This document shows positions 1,546 through 39,812 of a DNA stretch of 39,812 nucleotides, in pieces (position 1 is the stretch's first letter; every line of letters begins with the position of its first letter). Position numbers and translations under genes: made by a program. The DNA comes from Pseudoroseomonas ludipueritiae (GTDB taxonomy: Bacteria; Pseudomonadota; Alphaproteobacteria; Acetobacterales; Acetobacteraceae). The stretch spans positions 1 to 39,812 of the forward strand of contig NZ_JACTUZ010000026.1 in the NCBI RefSeq assembly GCF_014490445.1. Reading direction: 5' to 3'. The notes under the pieces were generated by a model. It was given only the letters and a program-made list of their open reading frames with translations. It searched no databases and was not told the origin of the DNA.

Positions 1546-2289
1546 TTAGCGGCGGTAGACAGCCCTGGCGCTCCGCTCCGGTTTGAAGAGGCGGTCGGAG
1601 GCGCGGCGGGCGACGCCGTAGCATTCACAGGCGGCGCTCTCCAGGCCAGGCCGGTCCATCACCTCCACATGGCCACGCTCATAGCGGATGAACTGAGCCC
1701 TCTGCAGCGCGCCCGCAGCCACGGTCACGCCAGCGCGCCGCACTCCCAGCATCATGGCCAGGAACTCGTGGGTCATAGGAAAGCCATCCCCTTCGCTGCG
1801 GTCATGCGCCATCAGCAGCCACCGCGCCAGCCGCTGCTCGGTCTGGTGGCGGCCGTTGCAGGCCGCGGTGCGGGCCACCTGCCCATGATGGACCAGAGCA
1901 TAGCGCAGCAGCAGGTCGCGCAGGATGGGGTCCTCATCCATGGCCTGGCGCAGGGCCACGGCGCTCACGGCGAAGGCGGTGCCGGCGGCTTGCACCACAG
2001 CCTCGAGGTCGTCGAACTCATCGGCCAGGATGACGGGCAGCCCGACCACCCCCTCGAAGCCGACGAGCCCCACCTCCGTCGCATCGCCATCCTCCATCGT
2101 GGCCAGCATGGAGGCCCAGCCGCTTTCGGGGAAATAGACGGTGCTGATGGGAACTTCCGGCTCGTGCAGCACGCGGCGGATTGGCATCTCCACCTCCTCC
2201 AGCATCGGCCGGAGGCGGGCGAGGCTGTCAAATGGCAGCGCCGCGAGCAGGCGGTTGCGCGGAGAAAACGAGGATCGGCTGGTGTCCAT
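1546..2289 (-). CDS. Crp/Fnr family transcriptional regulator
   Basis: A 247-residue one-component regulator. Residues about 15-130 form a cyclic-nucleotide-binding-like beta roll (pattern FPESGWASML...GLVGFEGVVGLP), and residues about 150-215 form the winged helix-turn-helix (EFLAMMLGVRRAGVTVAAGALQ region). The N-terminus lacks the cysteine cluster of true Fnr proteins, so an oxygen-sensing Fe-S cluster is unlikely. This subgroup is common in Rhizobiales and Acetobacteraceae and usually has no assigned ligand. An AGGAGC element precedes the ATG. It is a single gene with no co-directional partner close enough for an operon. The target is unknown. Confidence 0.88.
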   Translation of the reverse strand: MDTSRSSFSPRNRLLAALPFDSLARLRPMLEEVEMPIRRVLHEPEVPISTVYFPESGWASMLATMEDGDATEVGLVGFEGVVGLPVILADEFDDLEAVVQAAGTAFAVSAVALRQAMDEDPILRDLLLRYALVHHGQVARTAACNGRHQTEQRLARWLLMAHDRSEGDGFPMTHEFLAMMLGVRRAGVTVAAGALQRAQFIRYERGHVEVMDRPGLESAACECYGVARRASDRLFKPERSARAVYRR

Positions 2290-2430
2290 GGCGGTGCTCC
2301 TGCCTCGGATATCCGCGGGACCACGTGCATCTCTCAGGCACCCGCGCAGGAGCGGTCTCGGCGGGCGGTGAAATGATTGTGGCCGCGTGCAGCCTGATTA
2401 CACCTCTGAACGGCACGGTGGGATGAAATT

Positions 2431-2456
2431 CGCCCGCTTCGGCCTGGCGGCGGGCG
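2431..2456 (-). terminator. Possible terminator after the aconitase-like gene
   Basis: A 7-bp inverted repeat (CGCCCGC / GCGGGCG, 12-nt loop) lies just past the stop codon of the minus-strand operon. On that strand it is followed by AATTTC, a weak T-rich tail. Confidence 0.4.
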
Positions 2457-2462
2457 CGAGGG

Positions 2463-4427
2463 TCATGCCTGTCCCGCCGCCTGAGGAAGGCCCGCACGTT
2501 CCTGCAAGCCTTCAAAGGACACCAGCTCACCAACAATGGCGCTCGCGGCAACGGTCGGCGGGCTCGCGAGCCAGACGCCGCCCGGGCCGCCACGGCCAGG
2601 GAAGTTGCGGTTGATGGCGCTGACGGTCACCTGCTCGGGGCGCGTGGATGTGCCCGGGCCGCAATTGGCGCAGGCGCCGCAGGCGGGTTGCAGGATCTGG
2701 GCGCCGACCTTCTCGAAGGTCTCCAGGTATCCCTTGGCTTCGCAGTAATCCCGCACCGCCGTCGTGCCGAACTGAAGATACAGCTCCACGCCCTTGGCGA
2801 CGCGCAGCCCGCGCTCCGCGGCCCAGGCCAGCACCTCGTGATAGCGGTCGAAATCCTCCCGCTTGCCGGCGGTGCAGGAGCCGCCATAGGCGATGTCGAT
2901 CCGCACGGGGGAGGGGAGGGTGGCAAGGTCCAGCCCCCGTCCCGGGTCGCCGGGCGCCGCCACCATGGGCGAGAGGCGGGACAGATCGACCGTGATCCGG
3001 CCGGCATAGCTGGCGCCCGGGTCGCTGCGCATCCAGGGCTCGACCGGGACATCAATGCCGCGCCGCTCACGCAGGAAGCGCCGCGTTTCCTCATCCGGCT
3101 CCACGATGCCGCTGAAGCCGCCCAGCTCGGCGGTCATGTTGGTCAGGGTGGTGCGCTCGTCGGTGTTCAGCCCCGCGATGCCAGGGCCGCCGAACTCGAA
3201 GATCTTGCCCACGCCTTCGCCGGCACGCAGGGAGGGCAGTGCCAGCAGATGCAGCACCAGGTCCTTCGCCGTGACGCCGCGCGGCAGCGTGCCTTCCAGC
3301 TCGATCCGCAGCACGGAGGGAACCGCGAGCCGGACGGCGCCCGTGGTCATGGCATTGGCCATGTCCGTGGTGCCCACGCCGAAGGCGAGGCAGCCCAGCG
3401 CCCCGCTGTGCGGCGTATGGGAATCCGTGCCGGCGATGAGCTGGCCGGGCAGCGCGTATTGCTCCGCCATCAGGGCGTGGGAAATGCCTTCGGAGCCTTC
3501 GCCGCCGGGCAGGTAGCCATGGTCGCGAAGCCCATGCTCGGCCACGAAGGCGCGGTGCGCCTCCGACAGCGCCCGGACCTGCGGCAGAAGGCCGCGCGCC
3601 ACATGGGCGGCGCTGCGGTGCGCGTAGGAATAGTGATCCTCGAAGGTGAGGATGCTCTCCGGGTTCCGGAGCGTCAGGGCCTCGCCAAAGGCTTCGCGCA
3701 GCATGAAGCGGCACATGGCCGTGTAGATATCATGGATGAAGCGGAAATCCGGCCGCACGAAGGCGCTCTGCCCCGGCGCGAACCCTGTCTCGATCCCTGG
3801 AACGGCCAGCGCGTGCCGGGCCAGGATCTTCTCGGCCAGGGTCAGCGGCCCCCGCGGCACCGCGCCTGCCAGCGCGGCCGCGCCCAGCCGCTCGCGCCCG
3901 TAATTCAGCAGCCCACCGGCACGCAGGACCGCGGCCGCCACGGGGTCACGGCCCGCGACAAGCTCCTCCACCTCGATGGCTTCGCCCTGGCGGATGCGTT
4001 CGACGAGGCCGAGATCGGTGGAGGTGAAGAGGCCGAGATTGTCGGCATTCTGACGGTAGATGCGCTCGAAGCTCTCGGCGATGACGAGGCGGATGCCGGC
4101 CATCCGCTCCGCCAGCGGGGAATGCTCGCGCGAGGAGCCCTTGCCATAGCGTGCCCCGCCGACCGTGACCGAAAAGCCCCCCTGCCGCACCGCGCCCACC
4201 CCGATGGGCAGCGCATCCCCGGCCTTCACCCCGGTATAGGCATGATCCGCCAGCCGCTCGTCGAAATAGACGAGTGAGGGGAGGGGCGTGATCTCGTCGG
4301 TGGAGATCTCGGTCCTCAGCGCCCCGGCCGAAGCCAAGCCGAGATCCTGCCCGCCGAGCTGCGCCGCGATGGCGGCAGGATCGGTGGAGAGGAGGAGGAT
4401 GCGCCCAGGCAGGGGGAGCGTGGTCAT
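2463..4427 (-). CDS. Aconitase-family hydratase/isomerase, swivel domain first
   Basis: A 654-residue Fe-S dehydratase. Unlike AcnA, the swivel (LeuD-like) domain is N-terminal, about residues 1-190, with the substrate-binding GSSREH loop at 97-102. The catalytic LeuC-like domain fills the rest, with the TDSHTPHSGALG segment, a GSCTAGKR cysteine at 518 and a CGAC pair at 583/586 as the expected [4Fe-4S] ligands. All key residues seem present. It is the last gene of a minus-strand operon and overlaps the CoA-transferase gene by an ATGA. The family moves a hydroxyl between neighbouring carbons of a di- or tricarboxylic acid. With a CoA-transferase and an HMG-CoA-lyase homologue beside it, it more likely isomerises a dedicated hydroxy acid than serves the TCA cycle. 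The substrate is unknown. Confidence 0.85.
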   Translation of the reverse strand: MTTLPLPGRILLLSTDPAAIAAQLGGQDLGLASAGALRTEISTDEITPLPSLVYFDERLADHAYTGVKAGDALPIGVGAVRQGGFSVTVGGARYGKGSSREHSPLAERMAGIRLVIAESFERIYRQNADNLGLFTSTDLGLVERIRQGEAIEVEELVAGRDPVAAAVLRAGGLLNYGRERLGAAALAGAVPRGPLTLAEKILARHALAVPGIETGFAPGQSAFVRPDFRFIHDIYTAMCRFMLREAFGEALTLRNPESILTFEDHYSYAHRSAAHVARGLLPQVRALSEAHRAFVAEHGLRDHGYLPGGEGSEGISHALMAEQYALPGQLIAGTDSHTPHSGALGCLAFGVGTTDMANAMTTGAVRLAVPSVLRIELEGTLPRGVTAKDLVLHLLALPSLRAGEGVGKIFEFGGPGIAGLNTDERTTLTNMTAELGGFSGIVEPDEETRRFLRERRGIDVPVEPWMRSDPGASYAGRITVDLSRLSPMVAAPGDPGRGLDLATLPSPVRIDIAYGGSCTAGKREDFDRYHEVLAWAAERGLRVAKGVELYLQFGTTAVRDYCEAKGYLETFEKVGAQILQPACGACANCGPGTSTRPEQVTVSAINRNFPGRGGPGGVWLASPPTVAASAIVGELVSFEGLQERAGLPQAAGQA

Positions 4428-31113: not shown

Positions 31114-31854
31114 CTAGGTTTCCCTTGCTCTGCCATGTGCAGTGAGGCTCCTGCCGCAATCGGCTTTCTTCTCGACGAGCCACCACTGACGCGCGACGCA
31201 GGCTACCAGTTCCGATTGCTTGTTCATGCCGAGCTTGGCGTAGATGCGTCCGGTGTGGACGCGCACCGTGTGGAAGCTGATATCCAGGCGGCGGCCGATC
31301 GCCTTGGCGTCCCAGCCGTGATACACCAGCAAGGCGATCTCCAGTTCGCGTGGGGTCAGAACATCCAGCAGGCTCGGCATTTCCTGCTCCAAGCCGCCTT
31401 TCAGCACGACATACCGCCGGCCGCAGAGCGCGAGACTGCCCAGGATCTCCTTCCCTGCCGGAGCAGCATGGTCGGGCACCACCTCGCAGGAATGCCCGGC
31501 GATGCTGAAGCAGGCCACCGGAACCTCCTCCGGCTGCGCTGCTGCGCTTCCCCACGCCGTGTCTGCCTCGCCATCGCCCGGTATCGGTCCTGGAGTATGG
31601 CCGGCCTCCACGCTTTCTGCGCGGCGCACCCATCGTGACCGGATGGCGTCGATCAACGGCCTTGGAACGGCATGAGCGCCGAAGTGGCCCGACTGTGGCT
31701 TCACCTGAAGTCTCCAAGGGTTCCGCCGGGGCGATGTTCTGGCGGAGAAAGGATGGTTCCCCAACCGCCGGATGGAGTTGCAGCCTGCTGCCATGCCCGC
31801 CCAGGATGCCTCAACCGGCTCGCCCGGCTCAATCATTCCGTTGCCGAAGTGCAA
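31114..31854 (-). CDS. LuxR-type HTH regulator, start uncertain
   Basis: The C-terminal 70 or so residues are a clear LuxR/GerE DNA-binding domain: LTPRELEIALLVYHGWDAKAIGRRLDISFHTVRVHTGRIYAKLG. Before it, a stretch ending LGSLALCGRRYVVLKGG resembles the small N-terminal part of short LuxR proteins in this order. The first 60-80 residues of the longest frame look non-coding, and the first in-phase codon is a TTG touching the protease stop. The true start is probably further in, at a GTG or TTG that I cannot fix. It follows the protease gene on the same strand and may be its last partner or an independent regulator. No receiver or autoinducer domain is visible. Confidence 0.7.
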   Translation of the reverse strand: MHFGNGMIEPGEPVEASWAGMAAGCNSIRRLGNHPFSARTSPRRNPWRLQVKPQSGHFGAHAVPRPLIDAIRSRWVRRAESVEAGHTPGPIPGDGEADTAWGSAAAQPEEVPVACFSIAGHSCEVVPDHAAPAGKEILGSLALCGRRYVVLKGGLEQEMPSLLDVLTPRELEIALLVYHGWDAKAIGRRLDISFHTVRVHTGRIYAKLGMNKQSELVACVARQWWLVEKKADCGRSLTAHGRARET

Positions 31855-32967
31855 TCACGGCATCGCCACCATGGCGCCAGCCCCGGCAATCATCCGTGAG
31901 GGGTCCGCTGCCGCCGCCACCAGTTCCGCCGTGATCCGGACACCGCTGTTCACGGTGCCCGGAGGGGCCAGCAACGCCCCGCGCTTGCAGCCATGGGAAC
32001 GCCCCTCCGCATCCAGCAGCCCGGCTGTATGCACGCCGATGATCGCGGCATCGTTCCCGAGGCGCGTGATGATCGGGCTGCCGCTATGGCCCGGGCAGGT
32101 ATCCACCGAATGGAACAGGCGCCTTGGGCTGAAGCGCACCAGGCGCTCCGCATGCCGCCAAAGGGTGCCGAGTGGCCGGTCGGACGGGTATCCCGCCACG
32201 GTGATGCGCCCACGCTCCCTGATCCGCGCGATGCTCGCATCCGGCAGCGAACGGAGCGGCATGAAGCGCCGCAGGCCCGGGAAGGGGCGTGGAAGGTCGA
32301 TGAACCCCCAGTCCCAGACACCACGCTCCGGCCCCTCGATGAAGCCGCGCGGAACCCAGAAGCGCCGGGCTTCCATGGTGCCGTAGGGCATGGTCCCCCG
32401 GTCGCTCCGCCCTGGCACGACGATGATGCGGACGGGTGCCCGCCTGCGCTGCAGGCTCCAGATGCAATGCGCCGCCGTCAGCACCCGGCGCGGCGAGATC
32501 AGCACCCCGCTGCAGCCGGAGCACCCGCCGCCGCCGAAGTCGCGGCACAGATGAACCATCGTGTTCCAGGGGTAGAGCTTGGTGCGGATTTCCTGCACGC
32601 GGTCATCGGAGGGGCCGATCACCGAAAGGTCCGCATCCTCCTCCCCAGGCTGTTCGGCGCTCCGGCGCTCGTCCGGCCAGTAGCCGCCATCCCATGGCAG
32701 CGGCGGTGCGGTGGCCAGGGGATCGTCACCCGGGGGATTGCTCCAGGGGTCGACCGGCGGCAGGCCCTGCGGGTCCCACGGCACATAGTCCCACCAGCCC
32801 GAACCCCAGGGGATGGCTCCTCCCCAGCCACGCCATCGCGGGCCGCGCCGCCAGGGCGGGTAACCCCATGGCCTTGTGATGGGCGGGGGCAAGCCGCCGC
32901 CAGGGCTCCAGCCGCCACGGCGCACAGGCCCGGCGGCACCTGATGCGACACGGTGAAGGCGCCTCAT
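31855..32967 (-). CDS. Trypsin/V8-like serine protease with Trp/Pro-rich leader
   Basis: A 370-residue S1-type protease. The triad is readable: H167 in LTAAHC, D219 in VWDWGFIDL, and S295 in CPGHSGSPI. The GHSGSP form, in place of GDSGGP, resembles V8/glutamyl endopeptidases. Residues about 18-100 are strikingly rich in Trp, Pro and Gly and acidic towards the end, and look like a disordered leader or propeptide. There is no clear signal peptide, so export is uncertain. Six cysteines (141, 149, 152, 168, 291, 327) could form disulfides. The start overlaps the stop of the preceding gene (ATGA), which ties it to the upstream array. Confidence 0.85.
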   Translation of the reverse strand: MRRLHRVASGAAGPVRRGGWSPGGGLPPPITRPWGYPPWRRGPRWRGWGGAIPWGSGWWDYVPWDPQGLPPVDPWSNPPGDDPLATAPPLPWDGGYWPDERRSAEQPGEEDADLSVIGPSDDRVQEIRTKLYPWNTMVHLCRDFGGGGCSGCSGVLISPRRVLTAAHCIWSLQRRRAPVRIIVVPGRSDRGTMPYGTMEARRFWVPRGFIEGPERGVWDWGFIDLPRPFPGLRRFMPLRSLPDASIARIRERGRITVAGYPSDRPLGTLWRHAERLVRFSPRRLFHSVDTCPGHSGSPIITRLGNDAAIIGVHTAGLLDAEGRSHGCKRGALLAPPGTVNSGVRITAELVAAAADPSRMIAGAGAMVAMP

Positions 32968-33638
32968 GGCTTCTTCTCCTCAAAGGTCCAGGCACTGCCG
33001 ACATAGGATTTGGGCCGCTCGCGGACCTGCAGCGTGACCTCGAAGGCCCGCAGCAGCTTGGTGTCGAGCGGCGTGCCGGGGTCCGGGCTCACGCCGCCGA
33101 TCTGCACGGTGATCGCCGCCAGCCGCCTGTCGGCGCGGAACTCCGCCGCGATCTCCTGCTGCAGCCTGGCGACCTCGCTGCCCGCCGGATTGGGGGGGCG
33201 GCGCAGGGGCTTGCCTTGCGGCGCGATCACCGGAAGGACATGCGAGGACACGCGCCCCTGAACCGATGCGGCGGGCGCCATGCCGATATAGAGCGGCCTT
33301 GCCTCGCCCCGCCGCGCGATCCTGTAGAGGAGGAAGCGGTTGGGTTCCGTGAAGTCGGCTGGCGGCGCGGGCTGCGCGCGCCCGATCACCCGCATCAGTG
33401 GCACAGGGTCGCGCCATCCGTTGAAGGTGCCAGGCAGCGTCAGGCGCCTCGGGTGCCCGGCCTCGGCGCCAAGGGGCGCCTCGAAGCGGCCATTCTGCGC
33501 ATGCGCGAGGGCGGCGCTGAGGCTACGGCGGGCCAGCCGGTCGATCGCGCCGGTGCCTTTCCTGCACTGCCTGCAGCCGCAGGCACATGCATGGCCGGGC
33601 GCGCGGCCCAGGTCGTTGTCGTAAAGGAGTCCGCTCAT
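32964..33638 (-). CDS. Cys-cluster protein with GIY-YIG-like pattern
   Basis: A 224-residue protein. Near the N-terminus it has four closely spaced cysteines (C18, C20, C22, C25; CACGCRQC), a possible metal site. The middle and C-terminal half fit the GIY-YIG nuclease pattern: LLYRI (104-107), LYIGM ten residues on (YIG 117-119), R129 and H133 in GRVSSH, and E200 in LLRAFEVTL followed by RERPKSY. These are the positions of the catalytic Tyr/Tyr, Arg and Glu, but the spacing between Arg and Glu is long. The start is chosen for GGGAGG four bases upstream plus an ATGA overlap with the upstream gene. Fold assignment is by eye only. Confidence 0.55.
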   Translation of the reverse strand: MSGLLYDNDLGRAPGHACACGCRQCRKGTGAIDRLARRSLSAALAHAQNGRFEAPLGAEAGHPRRLTLPGTFNGWRDPVPLMRVIGRAQPAPPADFTEPNRFLLYRIARRGEARPLYIGMAPAASVQGRVSSHVLPVIAPQGKPLRRPPNPAGSEVARLQQEIAAEFRADRRLAAITVQIGGVSPDPGTPLDTKLLRAFEVTLQVRERPKSYVGSAWTFEEKKP

Positions 33639-34501
33639 GGTACCTCCCACCACACTGCACTCGCGTCGTCCCAGAATTCCCGGAGTTCGTTGGCCGAGGC
33701 GGCGCCCCAGTCGAGGCTGTCATCGAGCGTCGCGGCCAGGACGCGCGGCGCCACCAGCAGCAGGCCGGCGACGCGGAACTGCCCGGCCTCGATCGGCACA
33801 GCGAGCCCGCTTCGCAGCAGCGCGGGCGTCAGGCAGCGGCGCAGGGCCTGCCGCACAGGCCCTTCCGCCAGGGGCTTGCAGCATATGCCGGAACGCTCAA
33901 GCCAATGGGCCAGGGCAGGGCTCTCCGCCTCCCGGTCCATGGTGGCCAGGATCATGGGGCGGGAAGCCCGCAGCGCCGCGGCCAGCGACAGCGCATCCCG
34001 GGCACAATCCGCCAGGATGTCGGGGGCGGTGAGGGGGGCGCCCGGGCTCGGCTCCTCGCCATGGTTCCGGGGCAGGAGGCGGGCATCGAAGGCGGCCGCC
34101 AGCGCATCGCGCCGGTCCATCAGGCCAGGGTCGTCGTCCTTGGGCAGCACCGATTCCGCCCAGCTATCGGCGGTCCAGTAGATGTTCGGGCAGCCCTCCA
34201 GGCGCAGCTCCTGCCGTGCCGAGGCCCATTCCCGCGTGGATTGCCCGAAGGCCCTGGCACCCGCCACACCGTCCATGCCACCAAGCTTCGTGGTTACCCG
34301 CTCTTCCCGCGCATAGCTCTTGTCCTGCACCAGCGTCCAATGGCCCTGGGGAAGCCAGACGGGCATCGCCCGGGCCAGGCCCAGTGTCCAGAACAGGCCG
34401 CAGGGCCGCAGCGACAGGCTGACATCCAGCACGCAGCCCTCCACCGAGGCGGGCAGTGCCAGGTTCGTGGCGGCGCCAGGCGGATTCCAGAGCGCGTTCA
34501 T
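33635..34501 (-). CDS. Hypothetical protein of the protease array
   Basis: I do not recognise this 288-residue protein. It has no signal peptide or membrane segment. The C-terminal half contains an alternating hydrophobic core (ALRASRPMILATMDREAESPALAHWLERSGICC) that could be a small alpha/beta domain, followed by PLAEGPVRQALRRCLTPALL. The C-terminus is acidic and Trp-rich (DDSLDWGAASANELREFWDD). TGAGG lies five bases before the ATG, and its stop overlaps the Cys-cluster gene by an ATGA, so the two are translated together. Reality as a gene rests on the overlap layout and length. Confidence 0.7.
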   Translation of the reverse strand: MNALWNPPGAATNLALPASVEGCVLDVSLSLRPCGLFWTLGLARAMPVWLPQGHWTLVQDKSYAREERVTTKLGGMDGVAGARAFGQSTREWASARQELRLEGCPNIYWTADSWAESVLPKDDDPGLMDRRDALAAAFDARLLPRNHGEEPSPGAPLTAPDILADCARDALSLAAALRASRPMILATMDREAESPALAHWLERSGICCKPLAEGPVRQALRRCLTPALLRSGLAVPIEAGQFRVAGLLLVAPRVLAATLDDSLDWGAASANELREFWDDASAVWWEVP

Positions 34502-34524
34502 GGCAACCTCAACAAGATCCGCGA

Positions 34525-35625
34525 TCAGATCGGCACCATCCGCGCATCCCGCGCCGGCATGCCCACAGCCCAGCGCAGGGATTCCGTGACACCTGGGAAG
34601 CGCCGCCCTTCATCCGTCATCCGGTAGGCTGCGATCCAGGCCTCGGCCTGCGCCGCGGCGGTCTGCGCCGTTGCCTGGAAGTCGGCCGGCGTCTGGTTGG
34701 TGTCGAAGGCGCTGCCGGAGACCCAGAGCAGCACGGCCCGCCCCGCCTCGGCCATCTTGGCCCGCTGGGACAATTCGCGCGCGCCGCCCATCCGCTGGTT
34801 CAGCACCGCTTCCACGACATCCCATTTGGTGCGGGCGTCGAAGGACTTCTTGATGTCCGGTGCGTCGAGAATCTCCAGGATCTGCTTCAGGTAGACGCTC
34901 GCCTCCATCGCCAGGGCCATGACATTGCCGTAGCTCGCCCGGTCCAGCGCGTAGCGCAGGTCCGTGCCGAGGCGCTGAACGACGGCGAGGGTGCCGAAGG
35001 GCCTCTGGTCGAGCGCCGGGCTGCCCTTGATGACCTCGGAGATCGTGAGGTCGCGGAAATACTGCGCCAGCGCGGTCATCAGCGCCACGAGCTGGAAGTG
35101 GAAGTTGACATTGACGATGGCGCCGGGCGGGCGCGGGGCGCGGCCGTAGTTGAAGACGCGCATATAGGCCGCGAGCCGGTCCCGCGGCTCGTAGCGGAGC
35201 GGCTGCCACTTGTCGAGCAGGTAGAGGCCGCGCGCGCCAGGGCCGCGATGCACCTTCATGCGCCCTTCGTGGAACAGGCGGCGCAACAGGTCCACCACCC
35301 GGAACACGCCCATGCGCTCGTGCTGGTAAACGAAGTAAAGTTCCGCTGCGGCCTGGATCTGCGCGGGGATGATGGAATCATCGAAATCCGCCGCGATCTC
35401 CGGCCAGGAGATCGCCCCGAAGCCGGAGGGGCCGCCCGCGGCGAGGCCGAGAAGATCGGAGAAGGCGCCGGCGGGATCTCCGGAGGCAGCACCGGCCAGG
35501 CGGCGGGCGCGCTCCTCCAGTTCACGCGCGACGCGCTCACGCAGCGCGGGATCGAGATCCTGCAGCGCCTGGTCGGTGAAGCCCGGAAACATGCTCCGTA
35601 GCGTCAGTTTGTCGTCCAGTGCCAT
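34525..35625 (-). CDS. Hypothetical protein of the protease array
   Basis: A 366-residue predicted soluble, mostly helical protein that I cannot place in a family. It opens MALDDKLTLRSMFPGFTDQALQDLDPALRERV and contains IIPAQIQAAAELYFVYQHERMGVFRVVDLLRRLFHEGRM and PRPPGAIVNVNFHFQLVALMTALAQYF as its best-ordered stretches. No signal peptide, transmembrane helix or known catalytic motif is visible. Its gene lies 54 bases after the 800-residue gene and 23 before the next, on the same strand. It may be a structural or scaffold part of whatever this array builds. Confidence 0.75.
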   Translation of the reverse strand: MALDDKLTLRSMFPGFTDQALQDLDPALRERVARELEERARRLAGAASGDPAGAFSDLLGLAAGGPSGFGAISWPEIAADFDDSIIPAQIQAAAELYFVYQHERMGVFRVVDLLRRLFHEGRMKVHRGPGARGLYLLDKWQPLRYEPRDRLAAYMRVFNYGRAPRPPGAIVNVNFHFQLVALMTALAQYFRDLTISEVIKGSPALDQRPFGTLAVVQRLGTDLRYALDRASYGNVMALAMEASVYLKQILEILDAPDIKKSFDARTKWDVVEAVLNQRMGGARELSQRAKMAEAGRAVLLWVSGSAFDTNQTPADFQATAQTAAAQAEAWIAAYRMTDEGRRFPGVTESLRWAVGMPARDARMVPI

Positions 35626-35679
35626 TGTCGGAGCCCTTTGCCTCGGTGATGGCGCCGCCTGCGCGGCTGCTCTTCTGGA

Positions 35680-38082
35680 TCACGATGACTTTTTCGGAGG
35701 ACCGCCCGACCGCGTGGGCGGGCTTGTTCCCGTTGAGGAACTGGCTTGCCCATTCGTCTCGTCCCGGTTCTCAGCAATGCGGTGGACGCCGTCGCGGAGT
35801 TCTTCGATGAGCTTCGCGATGGTCGTGTTCTTGCTCCGCATCCTGCTGAAGTCGTTGGCCAGTTGCTCTATGGCGTCCCGGGCGGGGCCGAGATGCCGCG
35901 CGACATCGGCGCCGGCAGTCCCTACTTGGTCGGCGGCCCTGGCGATGGTGGAGATATCGGTGTTATCGGCGATGCGGCAGACGCAGTTGCGAAGCTCTTC
36001 GATAAGCCTCGCAATGGTCGTGCTGTTGTTCTGCATCCTGCTGAAGTCGTCAGCGAGTTTCTCGATGGCCTTCCGGGCGGGGCCGACATGCTGCGCGGCA
36101 TCGATACTTGCTGCCCCGACCCGGTCGACAGCCTTGGCGATGGCGGAGGTATCGGTGTTGATGCCCGCCAAGCTCCCGGCGGCACGGAAGGCCTCCCCAC
36201 GGATGAGTTCCAGAGCACGCGCGGACCGCTGCGCGGAGAGGGGCGGTATATCGGGAAGGCCGATTTCCGGCGGCGAGCAGGTCTGAGCGCCTCGTCCCCG
36301 GATCAGCTCGAGCGCGTCGCCGATCATCTCGGAAAGCGCGCTGGATACATGTTCCTGCGGCACGCAGCCGAAGCTCATGGTCGCGATGACAGAGGCGAGG
36401 CGCTGCTGGGCAAGGCTCTGCAGGCAGAGCTCGTCCTCCATGGCCTGCAACATCGGCTCGGGAGTCCCCGGGAGCGGGCGGTGGGTCACTTTGTCGATCT
36501 TGCCCTCCCCCAGCAGGCGCCCCACCTTGGTGAGTAGCCTGATCAGAGCGGCACTGGTTGCTCCGGTCGTCGGACCCGTCCTGCGGCGCCCTATTCCGGC
36601 AATTATCCTGATCGGGGCTACATTGATTGCCCCGGCCTTCAGGATTGTCCTGCCACGCAGAGCAGTGGCAAGAACATAGGCCAGCAGCCCATAGGCCGCG
36701 GCGCGCCACTCCGGCTCCCCTTTGCCCTCAATGTCGTGGCCGGAGATGTAGAGGTCCATGGCACGGTCAAGGTCATGCAGGATCTTGTCCACCATGATCT
36801 GCAGCAGCACATCCTTGGCGTCGCAGTTGCAACCCAGAAAGCAGTCGGCGCGGGCCGCGAATTGCGTGCGTAGGCTGGCGAGCCGCGTCATTCGCTGCGC
36901 CACGGCGCTGTTCTGCCCCATGCTGGCGCGCGCACGCTGCGCGATCAGCGGGCGGGTGATGTAGAACAACCGGTGGCCCGCCGCGCTGGTCGTGAAGCTG
37001 TCGAGGAAAAGCTGAAGCGCCTTCAGGAACTGCGCGAGCCCTGGCGCGGAGGCTACCTTGCCGCCCAGGTTGAGCAGCCAATGGAGTTGCTGTGTCGAAA
37101 GCTCCGCCGTGGCGCCGAGGGCGCGCAATCCGGCGGCGTCGTTGCGTGCGGCCTGCTCGACCAGCCCGTCGAGGGCGCGACCCAGGGTGGCCTCGTCCAG
37201 CAGCGCCCGCAGGTCGAGATGACCGCTGGCTTCGATCTGCTGCATGAACTTGCGGTAGCCTTCCATGGCCCAGGGGAAGCCGTCGGAGGAGGAGGTTCCC
37301 TCGGTGTTCTGCAACATGGCGCGCAGGCCGGCGATCACGCCGTCCCGCCGTGCCTGCAGGTCGCTGGCGGCGATGGAAGGCAGCACGCGCAGGTTGCCGA
37401 GGCTGCGCCCGGCCAGGTTCTCGCCGGCCAGCACAAGCAGCAGGGAGGCGGCCTCGTCGAGGTCGCTCCCCAGGCGCCGGTAGGACGAGTTGCTGTCAGG
37501 GCTGAGCGCCCCGATCATCCGCGCGAGCCGCGAATACTCGCCCAACTGGCGCCGGGCACCCAGCAGCCTGTCGCGGGCGCGGGGGTCCAGCGCCAGGGCG
37601 GCGGCACTCTGGCCTTCCGCCAGGATGCCGCGGATGGAGTTCCACCAGCCAGAAATCTCCTGCGTGATGTCGCCCAGGCGGTGGTCGGTGGAGAGGGCCA
37701 GCAGGTCGCGGTCCACGGCCTGCTCGGCCTGTGCCATCTCGGCGCTCGTCGCCATGGATTCCACGGCGCGCACATTCGGCGCCGCGGCGATTTCCAGGGG
37801 CGTGGGCAAGCCGGCGGCTTCCGCCTCCAGCTCCCGCGCCTCACCCGGGAAGAGCTGGCGCAATCCCCGCGCTACCTCGACCGGGTCGTTCGGGTTTCCG
37901 ATGCGCAGGCGCTGGCGGATGATGTTGTCGACGATCTGTGCTGCCACGCCGCGGCTCCGTTCGGGCAGATCGACCTGCGGGCCCTGGCTGGCAGCCGCCG
38001 CGCCGGGGCCCGGCCGTGCCGGGGAACCGGTGGCCGCCGGATTGGTCCGGAAGAAAGGGGCGTCTCTCATGCGCGTCCTCAT
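35680..38082 (-). CDS. Large helical protein with tandem 65-residue repeat
   Basis: An 800-residue, largely alpha-helical protein of no family I know. Residues about 1-40 are Pro/Ala/Gly-rich. The body is long amphipathic helices, with a cysteine-rich spot (DCFLGCNCDAKD) near residue 420 and a possible hydrophobic helix (YGLLAYVLATAL) near 475. The C-terminal part holds two 65-residue copies of a coiled-coil-like unit and then a Ser/Thr/Pro/Gly tail. The start overlaps the metallopeptidase stop (ATGA); MRDAPFF four codons on is the alternative. The composition suggests a scaffold, filament or large carrier. No signal peptide. Confidence 0.75.
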   Translation of the reverse strand: MRTRMRDAPFFRTNPAATGSPARPGPGAAAASQGPQVDLPERSRGVAAQIVDNIIRQRLRIGNPNDPVEVARGLRQLFPGEARELEAEAAGLPTPLEIAAAPNVRAVESMATSAEMAQAEQAVDRDLLALSTDHRLGDITQEISGWWNSIRGILAEGQSAAALALDPRARDRLLGARRQLGEYSRLARMIGALSPDSNSSYRRLGSDLDEAASLLLVLAGENLAGRSLGNLRVLPSIAASDLQARRDGVIAGLRAMLQNTEGTSSSDGFPWAMEGYRKFMQQIEASGHLDLRALLDEATLGRALDGLVEQAARNDAAGLRALGATAELSTQQLHWLLNLGGKVASAPGLAQFLKALQLFLDSFTTSAAGHRLFYITRPLIAQRARASMGQNSAVAQRMTRLASLRTQFAARADCFLGCNCDAKDVLLQIMVDKILHDLDRAMDLYISGHDIEGKGEPEWRAAAYGLLAYVLATALRGRTILKAGAINVAPIRIIAGIGRRRTGPTTGATSAALIRLLTKVGRLLGEGKIDKVTHRPLPGTPEPMLQAMEDELCLQSLAQQRLASVIATMSFGCVPQEHVSSALSEMIGDALELIRGRGAQTCSPPEIGLPDIPPLSAQRSARALELIRGEAFRAAGSLAGINTDTSAIAKAVDRVGAASIDAAQHVGPARKAIEKLADDFSRMQNNSTTIARLIEELRNCVCRIADNTDISTIARAADQVGTAGADVARHLGPARDAIEQLANDFSRMRSKNTTIAKLIEELRDGVHRIAENRDETNGQASSSTGTSPPTRSGGPPKKSS
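35768..36157 (-). repeat. Two tandem 195-bp coding repeats
   Basis: Two adjacent 195-base units (35768-35962 and 35963-36157) in the large helical gene encode 65-residue copies with about 42 identical positions. Shared blocks include GPAR.AIE.LA.DFSRM and TTIA.LIEELR..V.RIA.N, giving a heptad-like helix. Confidence 0.85.
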
Positions 38083-39407
38083 GCGACCTTGGGTTCGATC
38101 TGGGCCGGTGCGGGGCGTGCGGTGCCGGCGCCATGACCGACTGGCACCAGGCGCTCCAGCATCATCCTGCCGAGTTCATGGGGTGCCACCCCGGCGGCCA
38201 GCGCGTAGTGGCAGGCACTGACCAGGAAGCGCGGCGGCAGGTCGCCCGGCATGCGGCCGCGGGCGAGCAGCAGCCCGCCGCGCCGGATGGCCGCCTGGTC
38301 ACGGCTGGTGAAGGGAATCACGCTCGCCAGGACCCGCTCAGCCAGCGCGCGGCGGGGCTGGAAGGCAATCTCGTCGACCACGGCGGGGATCGCCTCGCGC
38401 GCCGAGGCCAGCATGGCACGCGGAATACGGTGTCCCCGCCGCGGGTTGTAGAGGCCGGTCCAGACGCCGAGCAGTTCCGCCGCATCCTGTCCGAAGCCCA
38501 TGCGGCGCAGCATCTCCGCCATGATGGGCACGCGGAGATATCCTGTCGGGTGCGCGCCGCCAGGGCGGTAGGTCATCACCTTGTCGGCGGGGTGGGACAG
38601 GAATTCCGCCATGCCCCAGGCCGCCGCCGGCCCGCCCAGCAACAGCGCCGCGAGATCCGCGAAGATCTCCTTCTGCCATCGGCCGAAGACGCTGGTGACG
38701 CGTGGCGGCATCGCCATCTCCGAAAGGCGCAGCAGGACGGCGTTCTGCACTTCCACCCAGAGGCCAAGGTCTGCCTGCAGGTTATGCGCGACCTCGTGCA
38801 GGAACACGGCCTGCCATGGCCGGTCCCGGTCGAAGGGGATCCGGATCAGGGGGAAGGGGTTTGTCTCGCCCAGCAGGCGGCTCAACGTCACGCCGCGCCG
38901 GATGGTGGCGGGTGAGTAACCGTGCTCCAGGTAGGTCAATGGCGGCAGGAGCGTTCCCGGGAAGATCCGTGGCGCCGCCGCGGTGACCGCCGCGTAGCAA
39001 TCGCGGGCAATGGCGTCATGCGCCGCCAGCGGCCGCGCGAAGGCGGTGCCACGCTGGGCGAAGACCTCGAAGAACAGCCCGAATGCCCGCCGCGACCGGT
39101 CCACTTCGCGTTCCACCATGGCCATGGCAAGGAGACGGTCCTCAAGGGAAGCGCCGCGCGGCAGGCGGGCCAGGGCGGTGAGGCGCATCCGCACGGCGCG
39201 GTCGATGGCCCAGAGCCGCTGGTTCGCCGCGGCGAAATGCGCCTGGGAGGGTGCGAAGGGCAGGTCCTCCTGCCGCAGCCCGACGGATTGCCGGGTCAGG
39301 CCGACAAGGCGGCGGGCACGGCTGGCAAGGCCACGGCGCTTCGCGTCGAAGAAGCGCTCGATCGCTGCGCCGCGGCCATCCGGCATGGATGCAGCACCTC
39401 CGTCCAT
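38079..39407 (-). CDS. HEXXH zinc-metallopeptidase-like protein
   Basis: A 442-residue protein with the zinc protease motif HEVAH (H204, E205, H208) in VFLHEVAHNLQADLG, and a second motif EIFAD (E247, D251) about 40 residues on. This E-xxx-D spacing fits the gluzincin pattern, so E247 is the probable third ligand. Flanking sequence matches no family I recognise. There is no signal peptide; the N-terminus is basic and helical, and the C-terminal third (about 270-430) is a separate helical region. AGAGGG precedes the ATG at 39407; a second ATG seven codons in has GGAGG. The stop overlaps the next start. Confidence 0.78.
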   Translation of the reverse strand: MDGGAASMPDGRGAAIERFFDAKRRGLASRARRLVGLTRQSVGLRQEDLPFAPSQAHFAAANQRLWAIDRAVRMRLTALARLPRGASLEDRLLAMAMVEREVDRSRRAFGLFFEVFAQRGTAFARPLAAHDAIARDCYAAVTAAAPRIFPGTLLPPLTYLEHGYSPATIRRGVTLSRLLGETNPFPLIRIPFDRDRPWQAVFLHEVAHNLQADLGLWVEVQNAVLLRLSEMAMPPRVTSVFGRWQKEIFADLAALLLGGPAAAWGMAEFLSHPADKVMTYRPGGAHPTGYLRVPIMAEMLRRMGFGQDAAELLGVWTGLYNPRRGHRIPRAMLASAREAIPAVVDEIAFQPRRALAERVLASVIPFTSRDQAAIRRGGLLLARGRMPGDLPPRFLVSACHYALAAGVAPHELGRMMLERLVPVGHGAGTARPAPAQIEPKVA

Positions 39408-39437
39408 GACCGTGCCCTCTTTGCCCTCATGCCGTGC

Positions 39438-39812
39438 CTAGAAGTCCGGACGGATATAGATCGTCGCCGGGCCCTGGATGCGGATGCGGCGTCCGCGCAT
39501 GCCCTGGCGGCCCCATCCCTGGCCACTGCCCCAGCCATCCTGCCCCCCGCCGATACCGCCGAGCGAGGACATGATCTGCCGCGCCCGCTGCGACGGGGCC
39601 GAGAGGCTGCGCAACGCGCTGGGGTTCTGCGCCAGGCGGGCGATGGTGCGCACAAGCACCTTCGGGCGTGCCGCCGGCGGGGTGCCGTTGCTGGCCGCCG
39701 TCCTGCGCACGCTGGCCGCCACTTTCGGCAGGGCCCGAAGCGCTGTGGGCCCGCCCGCGCGAACCAGGCTGGTGGCGGCGCGCGTGACCGCCTTGGCCAC
39801 CTGCTGGCGCTG
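39438..39812 (-). CDS. Gly/Arg-rich hypothetical protein, 5'-truncated by the window edge
   Basis: The last 124 or so codons of a gene that enters from beyond the window; the frame is open to the final base. The visible part is a helical Ala/Arg/Ser-rich stretch (ARLAQNPSALRSLSAPSQRA), a glycine/tryptophan linker (GGIGGGQDGWGSGQGWG) and a basic C-terminus ending GPATIYIRPDF. It is unlike any family I know. It lies 30 bases upstream of the metallopeptidase-like gene on the same strand and is probably in the same operon. Confidence 0.65.
   Translation of the reverse strand, partial: QRQQVAKAVTRAATSLVRAGGPTALRALPKVAASVRRTAASNGTPPAARPKVLVRTIARLAQNPSALRSLSAPSQRARQIMSSLGGIGGGQDGWGSGQGWGRQGMRGRRIRIQGPATIYIRPDF

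What the first reader, a model, noticed from the sequence alone, without database searches (positions are those of the whole stretch)
31855..39812. Undescribed-looking operon pairing two kinds of protease with a GIY-YIG-like protein and a repeat scaffold
Seven minus-strand genes are packed with three ATGA overlaps (38079-38082, 33635-33638, 32964-32967) and gaps of 54 bases or less. They encode an HEXXH metallopeptidase-like protein, an S1/V8-like protease, a possible GIY-YIG nuclease with a cysteine cluster, an 800-residue repeat protein and three unrecognised proteins. None has an obvious signal peptide, so a cytoplasmic self-processing, defence or toxin-delivery apparatus is possible. No contractile-tail, T6SS or phage structural hallmark was recognised.
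Basis: partly seen in the sequence, partly recalled or inferred. Interest (0 to 1): 0.75.

Follow-up and report, generated by a model that had tools for sequence, protein, structure and literature searches.

The report
Widespread unnamed protease-and-effector operon
The seven packed genes are one version of an apparently undescribed gene set found in eight bacterial phyla, built around an acid-rich, membrane-active-looking protein, a zinc-protease-like protein and helper proteins with no known relatives, and followed by a changing cast of cell-wall, protein and DNA cutting enzymes that look like weapons or cargo.

Summary
The operon is real and part of something much wider. The seven minus-strand genes have the overlaps and gaps described. 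The first is cut by the contig end; its other part lies on contig C340. An eighth gene, a LuxR-type regulator (31114-31854), follows. All seven recur in the same order in two relatives, L016 and L045. The P0004 family spans eight phyla by record title (five only as metagenome bins), with HEXXH upstream in 76 of 76 loci that have enough sequence. No core family reached a curated Pfam or NCBIfam cut-off, and two predicted folds matched no solved structure. Genes behind the core are modular in relatives: shared N-terminal modules join murein peptidases, a nuclease or unknown domains. Best reading: a LuxR-controlled, protease-processed system deploying lytic and nuclease effectors, with the acidic/cationic protein as its membrane-active part. 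Anatomy and conservation are shown; mechanism is inferred. It does not need a contractile (eCIS) machine: the window's genome shows no sheath or Pvc16 match, though 27 of 49 other carriers have Pvc16.

The parts
39438..39812 (-). P0001: C-terminal fragment (124 aa) of the acidic/cationic protein; gene cut by the contig end, N-terminal 220 aa on contig C340
   Evidence: 55% identical over 71 aa to the L016 acidic protein; other part on G000:C340
38079..39407 (-). P0002: HEXXH...WxxExxxD metallopeptidase-like protein, 442 aa
   Evidence: H204, E205, H208, W244, E247, D251 invariant in 45 of 45 rows (A11) and 49 of 49 (A6); model pLDDT 89.5, no PDB fold match at E<=0.001
35680..38082 (-). P0003: 800-aa protein in the slot taken by the ~600-aa f3 protein elsewhere; 65-aa tandem duplication at its C-terminus
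   Evidence: homology to f3 not shown (probability 1.9%); sub-cut-off matches of its C-terminal part to Sigma70_ner, ZorA and DruC models
34525..35625 (-). P0004 (g366): hallmark core protein, all-helical model
   Evidence: 177 relatives in genome contigs; model pLDDT 81; no PDB fold match at E<=0.001
33635..34501 (-). P0005 (family 14): tail protein, relatives also behind (L090) or near (L112, other strand) the operon in cyanobacteria; possible PIN-like nuclease (acidic residues D26, D112, E116, D169 invariant in 5 of 5), a reading by eye only
   Evidence: no Pfam or PDB support
32964..33638 (-). P0006: GIY-YIG-like tail protein with N-terminal CxCxxC
31855..32967 (-). P0007: S1 trypsin-like serine protease with a W/G/P-rich N-terminal extension (by eye)
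   Evidence: Pfam Trypsin 8.6e-10
31114..31854 (-). LuxR/GerE-type regulator, true start uncertain within the ORF
   Evidence: Pfam GerE 9.3e-13; same BLAST cluster near the operon in other loci

Best explanation
A LuxR-controlled, proteolytically activated effector system. Shown: a conserved core (acidic protein, HEXXH protein, f3 or its stand-in P0003, P0004) followed by variable tail genes that in relatives are rich in lytic enzymes. Inferred: the acidic protein is a proform in which a D/E-rich segment holds a cationic amphipathic and glycine-zipper-like segment inactive. Zinc-dependent and, in the window, trypsin-like proteolysis frees it to act on membranes. P0004 and f3/P0003, which have no known relatives, assemble with it and carry or chaperone the tail proteins (in the window P0005, GIY-YIG-like P0006 and trypsin P0007), which act on a competitor, prey or the dying cell itself. 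As no signal peptide or secretion gene was recognised, release probably needs producer lysis or contact.
For: Core synteny: HEXXH upstream of P0004 on the same strand in 76 of 76 loci with at least 3.5 kb upstream (69 by gene call, 7 by tblastn); 4 of the 80 have too little sequence. Eight phyla. Acidic-family anatomy: D/E-rich, cationic amphipathic and glycine-zipper-like stretches all present in 58 of 109 family members, 0 of 514 other genes of the same loci, 0 of 109 shuffles; D/E-rich stretch before cationic stretch in 83 of 109, 6 of 514 and 2 of 109. One or two such genes lie within three genes upstream of HEXXH in 65 of 81 loci. The window genome's own piece has 34% D/E in 50 aa, followed by an 18-mer of net charge +5. 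Gluzincin-type residues invariant in 45 of 45. Tail genes: 11 of 47 carry cell-wall-type domains, some joined to shared N-terminal modules; trypsins and a non-specific nuclease also occur. Several cyanobacterial tail proteins share the tag QWLFEAP: one exact DNA match in 5 of 7 carrier genomes, all five in the operon's tail, against 2 of 145 other genomes of the phylum.
Against: No biochemical or export evidence exists. No immunity gene was identified. Effector-type modules or tags were not shown in the window's own tail genes. The commonest extra genes, M20 dipeptidase (cluster in 26 of 92 sources) and amidohydrolase (15 of 92, not all in the tail), fit peptide metabolism as well as attack. 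Neither predicted fold matches a solved structure, and zinc-site geometry was not examined. Some tail genes simply belong to the next operon (cystathionine-type enzyme, Crr6, EamA, transposase). Only 58 of 109 acidic proteins show all three features, and single features are common in controls (cationic stretch 78 of 514, glycine-zipper-like 108 of 514); family members are related, so they are not independent cases.
Confidence: 0.4

Rival explanations
1. A cytoplasmic storage or degradation compartment: the acidic, low-complexity protein and the helical core proteins build a condensate or membrane-associated body that concentrates hydrolases for peptide and cell-wall turnover.
For: Low-complexity acidic segment with hydrophobic segments; M20 dipeptidase and amidohydrolase clusters in 26 and 15 of 92 sources; no export signal recognised by eye.
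Against: In relatives, tail domains include a nuclease and several unrelated murein peptidases joined to swapped N-terminal modules, which suits conflict better than housekeeping; presence is sporadic (HEXXH in 5 of 200 family genomes including the window's own and one broken copy).
Confidence: 0.25
2. A programmed self-lysis or anti-infection suicide system: proteolysis frees the membrane-active segment and the co-made hydrolases finish the cell.
For: No signal peptide recognised by eye; cationic amphipathic segments; wall hydrolases and a nuclease in the tail of relatives.
Against: PADLOC gave only weak partial matches to the window's proteins; an effect inside the own cell does not explain varied wall hydrolases with shared modules; no sensor other than the LuxR gene was seen.
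Confidence: 0.15
3. A cargo module of extracellular contractile injection systems (eCIS) encoded apart from the tube.
For: Pvc16 in 27 of 49 carrier genomes searched: by record title 15 of 24 actinobacteria and 8 of 12 cyanobacteria among them, against 16 of 198 and 17 of 142 genomes drawn from those phyla (each draw includes one carrier as its centre). In L097 a Pvc16 gene and an AAA/winged-helix ATPase gene lie about 6 kb downstream on the same strand. eCIS loci also have an HExxH domain (DUF4157) and a LuxR/GerE gene beside 25.8% of them (passages of PMC8213781).
Against: 22 of 49 carriers show no Pvc16, and the window's genome neither Pvc16 nor sheath. In two chromosomes titled complete (Kutzneria, Sphingomonas QA11) the nearest Pvc16 lies over 2 Mb away, if genome and record numbering agree. 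P0002 does not match DUF4157 or any other Pfam family. The background draws were not matched for genome size: all 17 positive cyanobacteria have 4.6 Mb or more.
Confidence: 0.08
4. A loose run of unrelated accessory genes without joint function.
For: Most single genes match no known family; patchy in the family.
Against: Conserved order across eight phyla; all seven kept in L016 and L045.
Confidence: 0.03

Closest known systems
Extracellular contractile injection systems (eCIS) and their toxin genes (PMC8213781, passages read)
   Same: HExxH protein, LuxR/GerE gene and variable toxins including a predicted peptidoglycan hydrolase near the core; spread over many environmental phyla
   Different: No sheath or Pvc16 match in the window's genome; HEXXH protein does not match DUF4157; no phage-tail family among the window's proteins
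Polymorphic toxins and signal-less 'broken-hairpin' toxins (PMC12419801, passages and one section read)
   Same: A shared module joined to many toxin-type domains, no recognised secretion signal
   Different: Modules here are N-terminal and sit behind a conserved multi-gene core; similarity to the broken hairpin was not tested; no immunity gene identified
NTP-dependent conflict systems with trypsin/Trypco, caspase-type and metallopeptidase parts (PMC7159879, passages read)
   Same: Proteases together in one operon; several carriers are large-genome, multicellular bacteria
   Different: No NTPase or Trypco match among the window's seven proteins; only a sub-cut-off Trypco2 match in the side-branch locus L014
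Gluzincin metallopeptidases (HEXXH + ExxxD; thermolysin and neprilysin recalled)
   Same: Invariant HEXXH and downstream WxxExxxD
   Different: No Pfam match; mostly helical model without PDB match

Membership tests
eCIS | tail sheath gene (PF04984) in the genome | tested here: not met
   own genome 0 of 1; the same search rings in 3 of 14 control genomes
eCIS | Pvc16 (PF14065) | tested here: not met
   own genome 0 of 1 (where no control rang, but the same model rings in 27 of 49 other carriers)
eCIS | DUF4157 HExxH domain | tested here: not met
   P0002 matches no Pfam family up to E 1
Polymorphic-toxin-like effector system | conserved module joined to varying toxin-type domains | tested here: met
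   met in relatives only: module 1 in 7 proteins, module 2 in 5, module 3 in 5 (two of them one gene of one contig, L046/L126), module 4 in 2; partner domains OmpA, M15_4, VanY, DUF2272/CHAP, M74, NS endonuclease. Not shown for the window's own tail genes
Polymorphic-toxin-like effector system | cognate immunity gene | not tested
Polymorphic-toxin-like effector system | known secretion route or signal | tested here: inconclusive
   no export family matched by the window's proteins; signal peptides judged by eye only
Gluzincin peptidase | HEXXH and third ligand E in ExxxD | tested here: met
   invariant in 45 of 45 rows
Gluzincin peptidase | zincin fold | tested here: inconclusive
   confident model, no PDB match at E<=0.001, best 0.61
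GIY-YIG nuclease (P0006) | GIY/YIG strands, R, H/Y and E | tested here: inconclusive
   pattern invariant in 3 of 3 rows; Eco29kI best PDB match at E 0.36; no Pfam match
S1 trypsin (P0007) | Pfam Trypsin above cut-off | tested here: met
   39.2 bits against a cut-off of 20.6; triad context TAAHC, DWG, GHSGSP by eye
Known anti-phage systems | PADLOC family match | tested here: not met
   only weak partial matches: LmuA E 1.8e-4 over 21 residues of the trypsin, DruC E 9e-4 and ZorA in the C-terminal part of P0003
Phage or prophage genes | relatives in viral collections or PHROGs | tested here: not met
   no P0004 relative in IMG/VR or INPHARED; at E<=0.001 PHROGs matched only the trypsin, to a family of unknown function

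The most novel reading that the evidence does not exclude
A new, non-contractile class of effector-delivery or killing system, present in at least eight phyla. A protease-activated acidic proform of a membrane-perforating protein works with protein families of no known structural kin to deliver interchangeable wall-, protein- and nucleic-acid-cutting effectors, some marked by short tags such as QWLFEAP.
Probability: 0.3. Interest if true: 0.92.

Novelty: categorically new. Interest (0 to 1): 0.74.

Why it matters
A conserved multi-gene system with members titled Actinomycetota, Cyanobacteriota, Chloroflexota, Pseudomonadota, Acidobacteriota, Verrucomicrobiota, Planctomycetota and Armatimonadota, whose core families reached no cut-off in the libraries searched, would be a sizeable blind spot in the catalogue of bacterial machines. 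If it deploys effectors, it offers a new protein-delivery principle and a list of new enzymes; if it is a compartment or a suicide device, that is also new. Carriers include cultured environmental strains (record titles), so it is directly testable.

Tried and rejected
Rejected: membership of the window's operon in eCIS or phage tails and in known defence systems; P0003 as a repeat scaffold. Homology of P0003 to f3 is not shown. P0003's C-terminal part gave sub-cut-off matches to Sigma70_ner (E 3.4e-5, 24.3 bits against 29.7), ZorA and DruC models, which I take for coiled-coil likeness. The 22 weak P0004-profile hits in 299 genomes of the phylum (E 4e-6 to 9e-4, 21 of them in one family, f28) were not followed and are not counted as members. 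PDB profile searches gave only chance-level hits for P0004, HEXXH, f3 and P0005. Literature: nine searches listed no paper that I recognised as describing this operon; I opened four of the listed papers, in passages or one section. Most subscription papers are not held.

Limits. Genes in unannotated loci were called by my own codon-model script, which missed HEXXH in four loci and P0004 in three until tblastn was used. Clusters depend on BLAST thresholds, and the LuxR cluster also contains other regulators. Five of the eight phyla rest on metagenome bins only, which can be mixed. L046 and L126 are the same contig. The adaptor profiles were seeded from proteins they then find; only L083 and L110 (module 1), L105 (module 2) and L126 (module 3) were not seeds, and one weak non-tail hit (L125, E 0.0098) was set aside. 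The Pfam control used 47 of 366 eligible genes: the first 54 of a shuffled list less seven that I left out (long or at a contig edge). The tail and control tables show only the first 25 of 43 and of 108 families. The Pvc16 search covered the genomes of 49 of the 80 loci. The tag test used seven cyanobacterial genomes picked partly because the tag had been seen in some; the comparison set of 145 contains at least one carrier without an exact tag (L095's genome), and the two matches there were not examined.
Full report
What is in the window. The window is the whole contig C179 of a 5.35-Mb, 394-contig genome; the name Acetobacteraceae comes from the finding, not from a call. Seven minus-strand genes (39812 to 31855) have ATGA at each of the three stated overlaps and gaps of 30, 54 and 23 bases elsewhere. 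The first gene runs off the contig. A relative's acidic protein (from L016) finds its remaining part at the end of contig C340: a 220-residue open frame with D/E-rich repeats, then an amphipathic 18-mer of net charge +5. The two contig ends share 13 exact bases. Directly behind the seventh gene is a LuxR/GerE regulator. Among the seven proteins only the trypsin reaches a curated cut-off in Pfam, and none does in NCBIfam; PHROGs and PADLOC give no convincing match beyond the trypsin. P0003 has sub-cut-off matches to Sigma70_ner, ZorA and DruC models in its C-terminal part.

Conservation. P0002 is found in 5 of 200 genomes of the family and P0004 in 3 of 200, each count including the window's own genome; one of the five P0002 hits is a broken copy, and the three other genomes of the same genus have neither. 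All seven genes recur in order, with some further genes between them, in G021 (L016) and in G369 of another family of the class, where a DUF4438 gene and a small gene are added (L045). An alignment of P0004 relatives finds 177 encoding stretches in GTDB genomes; the best 80 were kept and all 80 were examined. BLAST clustering over these and 12 further sources put the P0004 cluster in 84, HEXXH in 81, acidic protein in 71, f3 in 64, the LuxR cluster in 60, M20 peptidase in 26, a ~186-aa protein in 16, amidohydrolase in 15 and trypsin in 9 of 92 sources. With tblastn added, HEXXH lies upstream of P0004 on the same strand in 76 of 76 loci that have at least 3.5 kb upstream; four loci (L050, L079, L088, L104) have too little. 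A tree of 82 P0004 rows covers eight phyla by record title; Chloroflexota, Acidobacteriota, Verrucomicrobiota, Planctomycetota and Armatimonadota are represented by metagenome bins only (titles). The window, L016, L017 and L045 form a separate clade (100/100) on a long branch, and this clade has P0003-type proteins in the f3 slot. P0003 and f3 are not shown to be homologous. No P0004 relative was found in IMG/VR or the phage collection.

The core proteins. HEXXH family: H204, E205, H208, W244, E247 and D251 (window numbering) are invariant in 45 of 45 aligned members and in the 49-row alignment that includes remote plasmid relatives. The model is confident (pLDDT 89.5) and mostly helical, with no PDB match at E<=0.001. 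P0004: all-helical model, pLDDT 81, no PDB match at E<=0.001. Acidic family: 94 of 109 members have a 50-residue stretch with at least 30% D/E, 101 have a cationic amphipathic 18-mer and 66 a glycine-zipper-like stretch; 58 have all three, and in 83 the acidic stretch comes before a cationic one. Of 514 other proteins of the same loci, 20, 78 and 108 have the single features, none all three, 6 the order; of 109 shuffled sequences 25, 20 and 14, none all three, 2 the order.

The tail. Behind P0004 the genes vary. Of 47 tail genes of at least 100 aa in the 80 loci (M20, amidohydrolase, LuxR and acidic genes set aside), Pfam finds PG_binding_1 in 4, OmpA in 3, M15_4 in 2, and M15_3, VanY, DUF2272 and an Rv2525c-type domain in 1 each, and Trypsin in 4. 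Counted once per gene the wall-type domains come to 11 of 47, nine seen one by one and two inferred from the counts and BLAST likeness. In 47 control genes from the same loci none of these is among the 25 families shown, out of 108 found. Some tail genes plainly belong to the next operon (cystathionine-type enzymes, Crr6, EamA, a transposase). Shared N-terminal modules join different partners: module 1 with OmpA, M15_4 and VanY; module 2 with an NS endonuclease or a GIY-YIG-like sequence (the latter by eye only; one search found no Pfam family in it); module 3 with M15_4, DUF2272/CHAP and, beside the operon on the other strand in a Rhodobacteraceae genome, the murein endopeptidase M74. Several cyanobacterial tail proteins share the tag QWLFEAP near the N-terminus (in L112 it lies inside my gene call). 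The matching DNA pattern occurs once in each of 5 of 7 carrier genomes, and all five places are in the operon tail. Among 146 genomes of the phylum it occurs in 3, one of them a carrier already counted.

The window's own tail genes fit this picture but do not prove it. P0006 is GIY-YIG-like, P0007 is a trypsin, and P0005 belongs to a family that also occurs behind or near the operon in two cyanobacteria (L090, L112). P0005 shows invariant acidic residues reminiscent of PIN nucleases, a reading by eye without database support. No shared module or tag was shown in them.

Relation to eCIS. Pvc16 is present in 27 of 49 carrier genomes searched, by title 15 of 24 actinobacteria, 8 of 12 cyanobacteria and 4 of 13 others, against 16 of 198 actinobacteria and 17 of 142 cyanobacteria drawn from the phyla. 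The draws were not matched for genome size, and all 17 positive cyanobacteria have 4.6 Mb or more, so enrichment is a lead and not a result. One locus (L097) has an eCIS-type Pvc16 gene and an AAA/winged-helix ATPase gene downstream. The window's genome has neither Pvc16 nor a sheath match, and 22 of 49 carriers show no Pvc16, so the system does not seem to need an eCIS.

Mechanism. Shown: one operon-like unit, a widely conserved core, acidic-then-cationic precursor anatomy, invariant zinc-protease residues, and in relatives a modular hydrolase-rich tail. Inferred: proteolytic activation of a membrane-active protein and deployment of tail proteins as effectors. Rivals, in order, are a hydrolytic compartment, a suicide system and an eCIS cargo module. 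Nine paper searches listed no description of the operon that I recognised; the nearest printed ideas are eCIS toxin associations (PMC8213781, passages), signal-less broken-hairpin toxins (PMC12419801, passages and one section) and NTP-dependent conflict systems (PMC7159879, passages).

Noticed in passing
L014:1-14468 and L015:10611-20782: Burkholderia pyrrocinia and Tolypothrix plasmids carry a second, diverged kind of P0004-containing operon with a subtilase, an amidase or peptidoglycan-binding protein and several paralogues of another unknown family.
   Followed up: partly
L009:8453-26943 and L010:6836-18005: Remote HEXXH relatives on rhizobial plasmids sit among CHAT, patatin, phospholipase D, subtilase, M4 or C25 peptidase genes, which look like another hydrolase-rich system.
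   Followed up: no
L019:8293-11489: A decayed copy of the operon in another genome of the family: HEXXH match split with a stop inside, remnant of P0004, LuxR-type gene still present.
   Followed up: no
L097:17432-20545: eCIS-type Pvc16 gene and AAA/winged-helix ATPase gene about 6 kb downstream of the operon on the same strand; the only such adjacency noticed.
   Followed up: partly
L137:797-1840 and 2101-3348: On contig C340, upstream of the acidic gene, lie a 347-aa ORF without Pfam match and, on the other strand, a P450-like gene (by eye).
   Followed up: partly
window:35767-36156: A 195-nt tandem duplication (79% identical) in the C-terminal tail of P0003, not seen in the other four aligned rows, so perhaps recent.
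   Followed up: partly
window:27834-30842: Between the operon and the rest of the window: an ornithine-cyclodeaminase-like gene, a GntR-type regulator and an SDR-type dehydrogenase (named by eye).
   Followed up: no
L023-L044: 22 genomes, 21 of them of one family (f28), give one weak P0004-profile hit each in a ~490-aa reading frame; either chance or a very remote single-copy relative.
   Followed up: no
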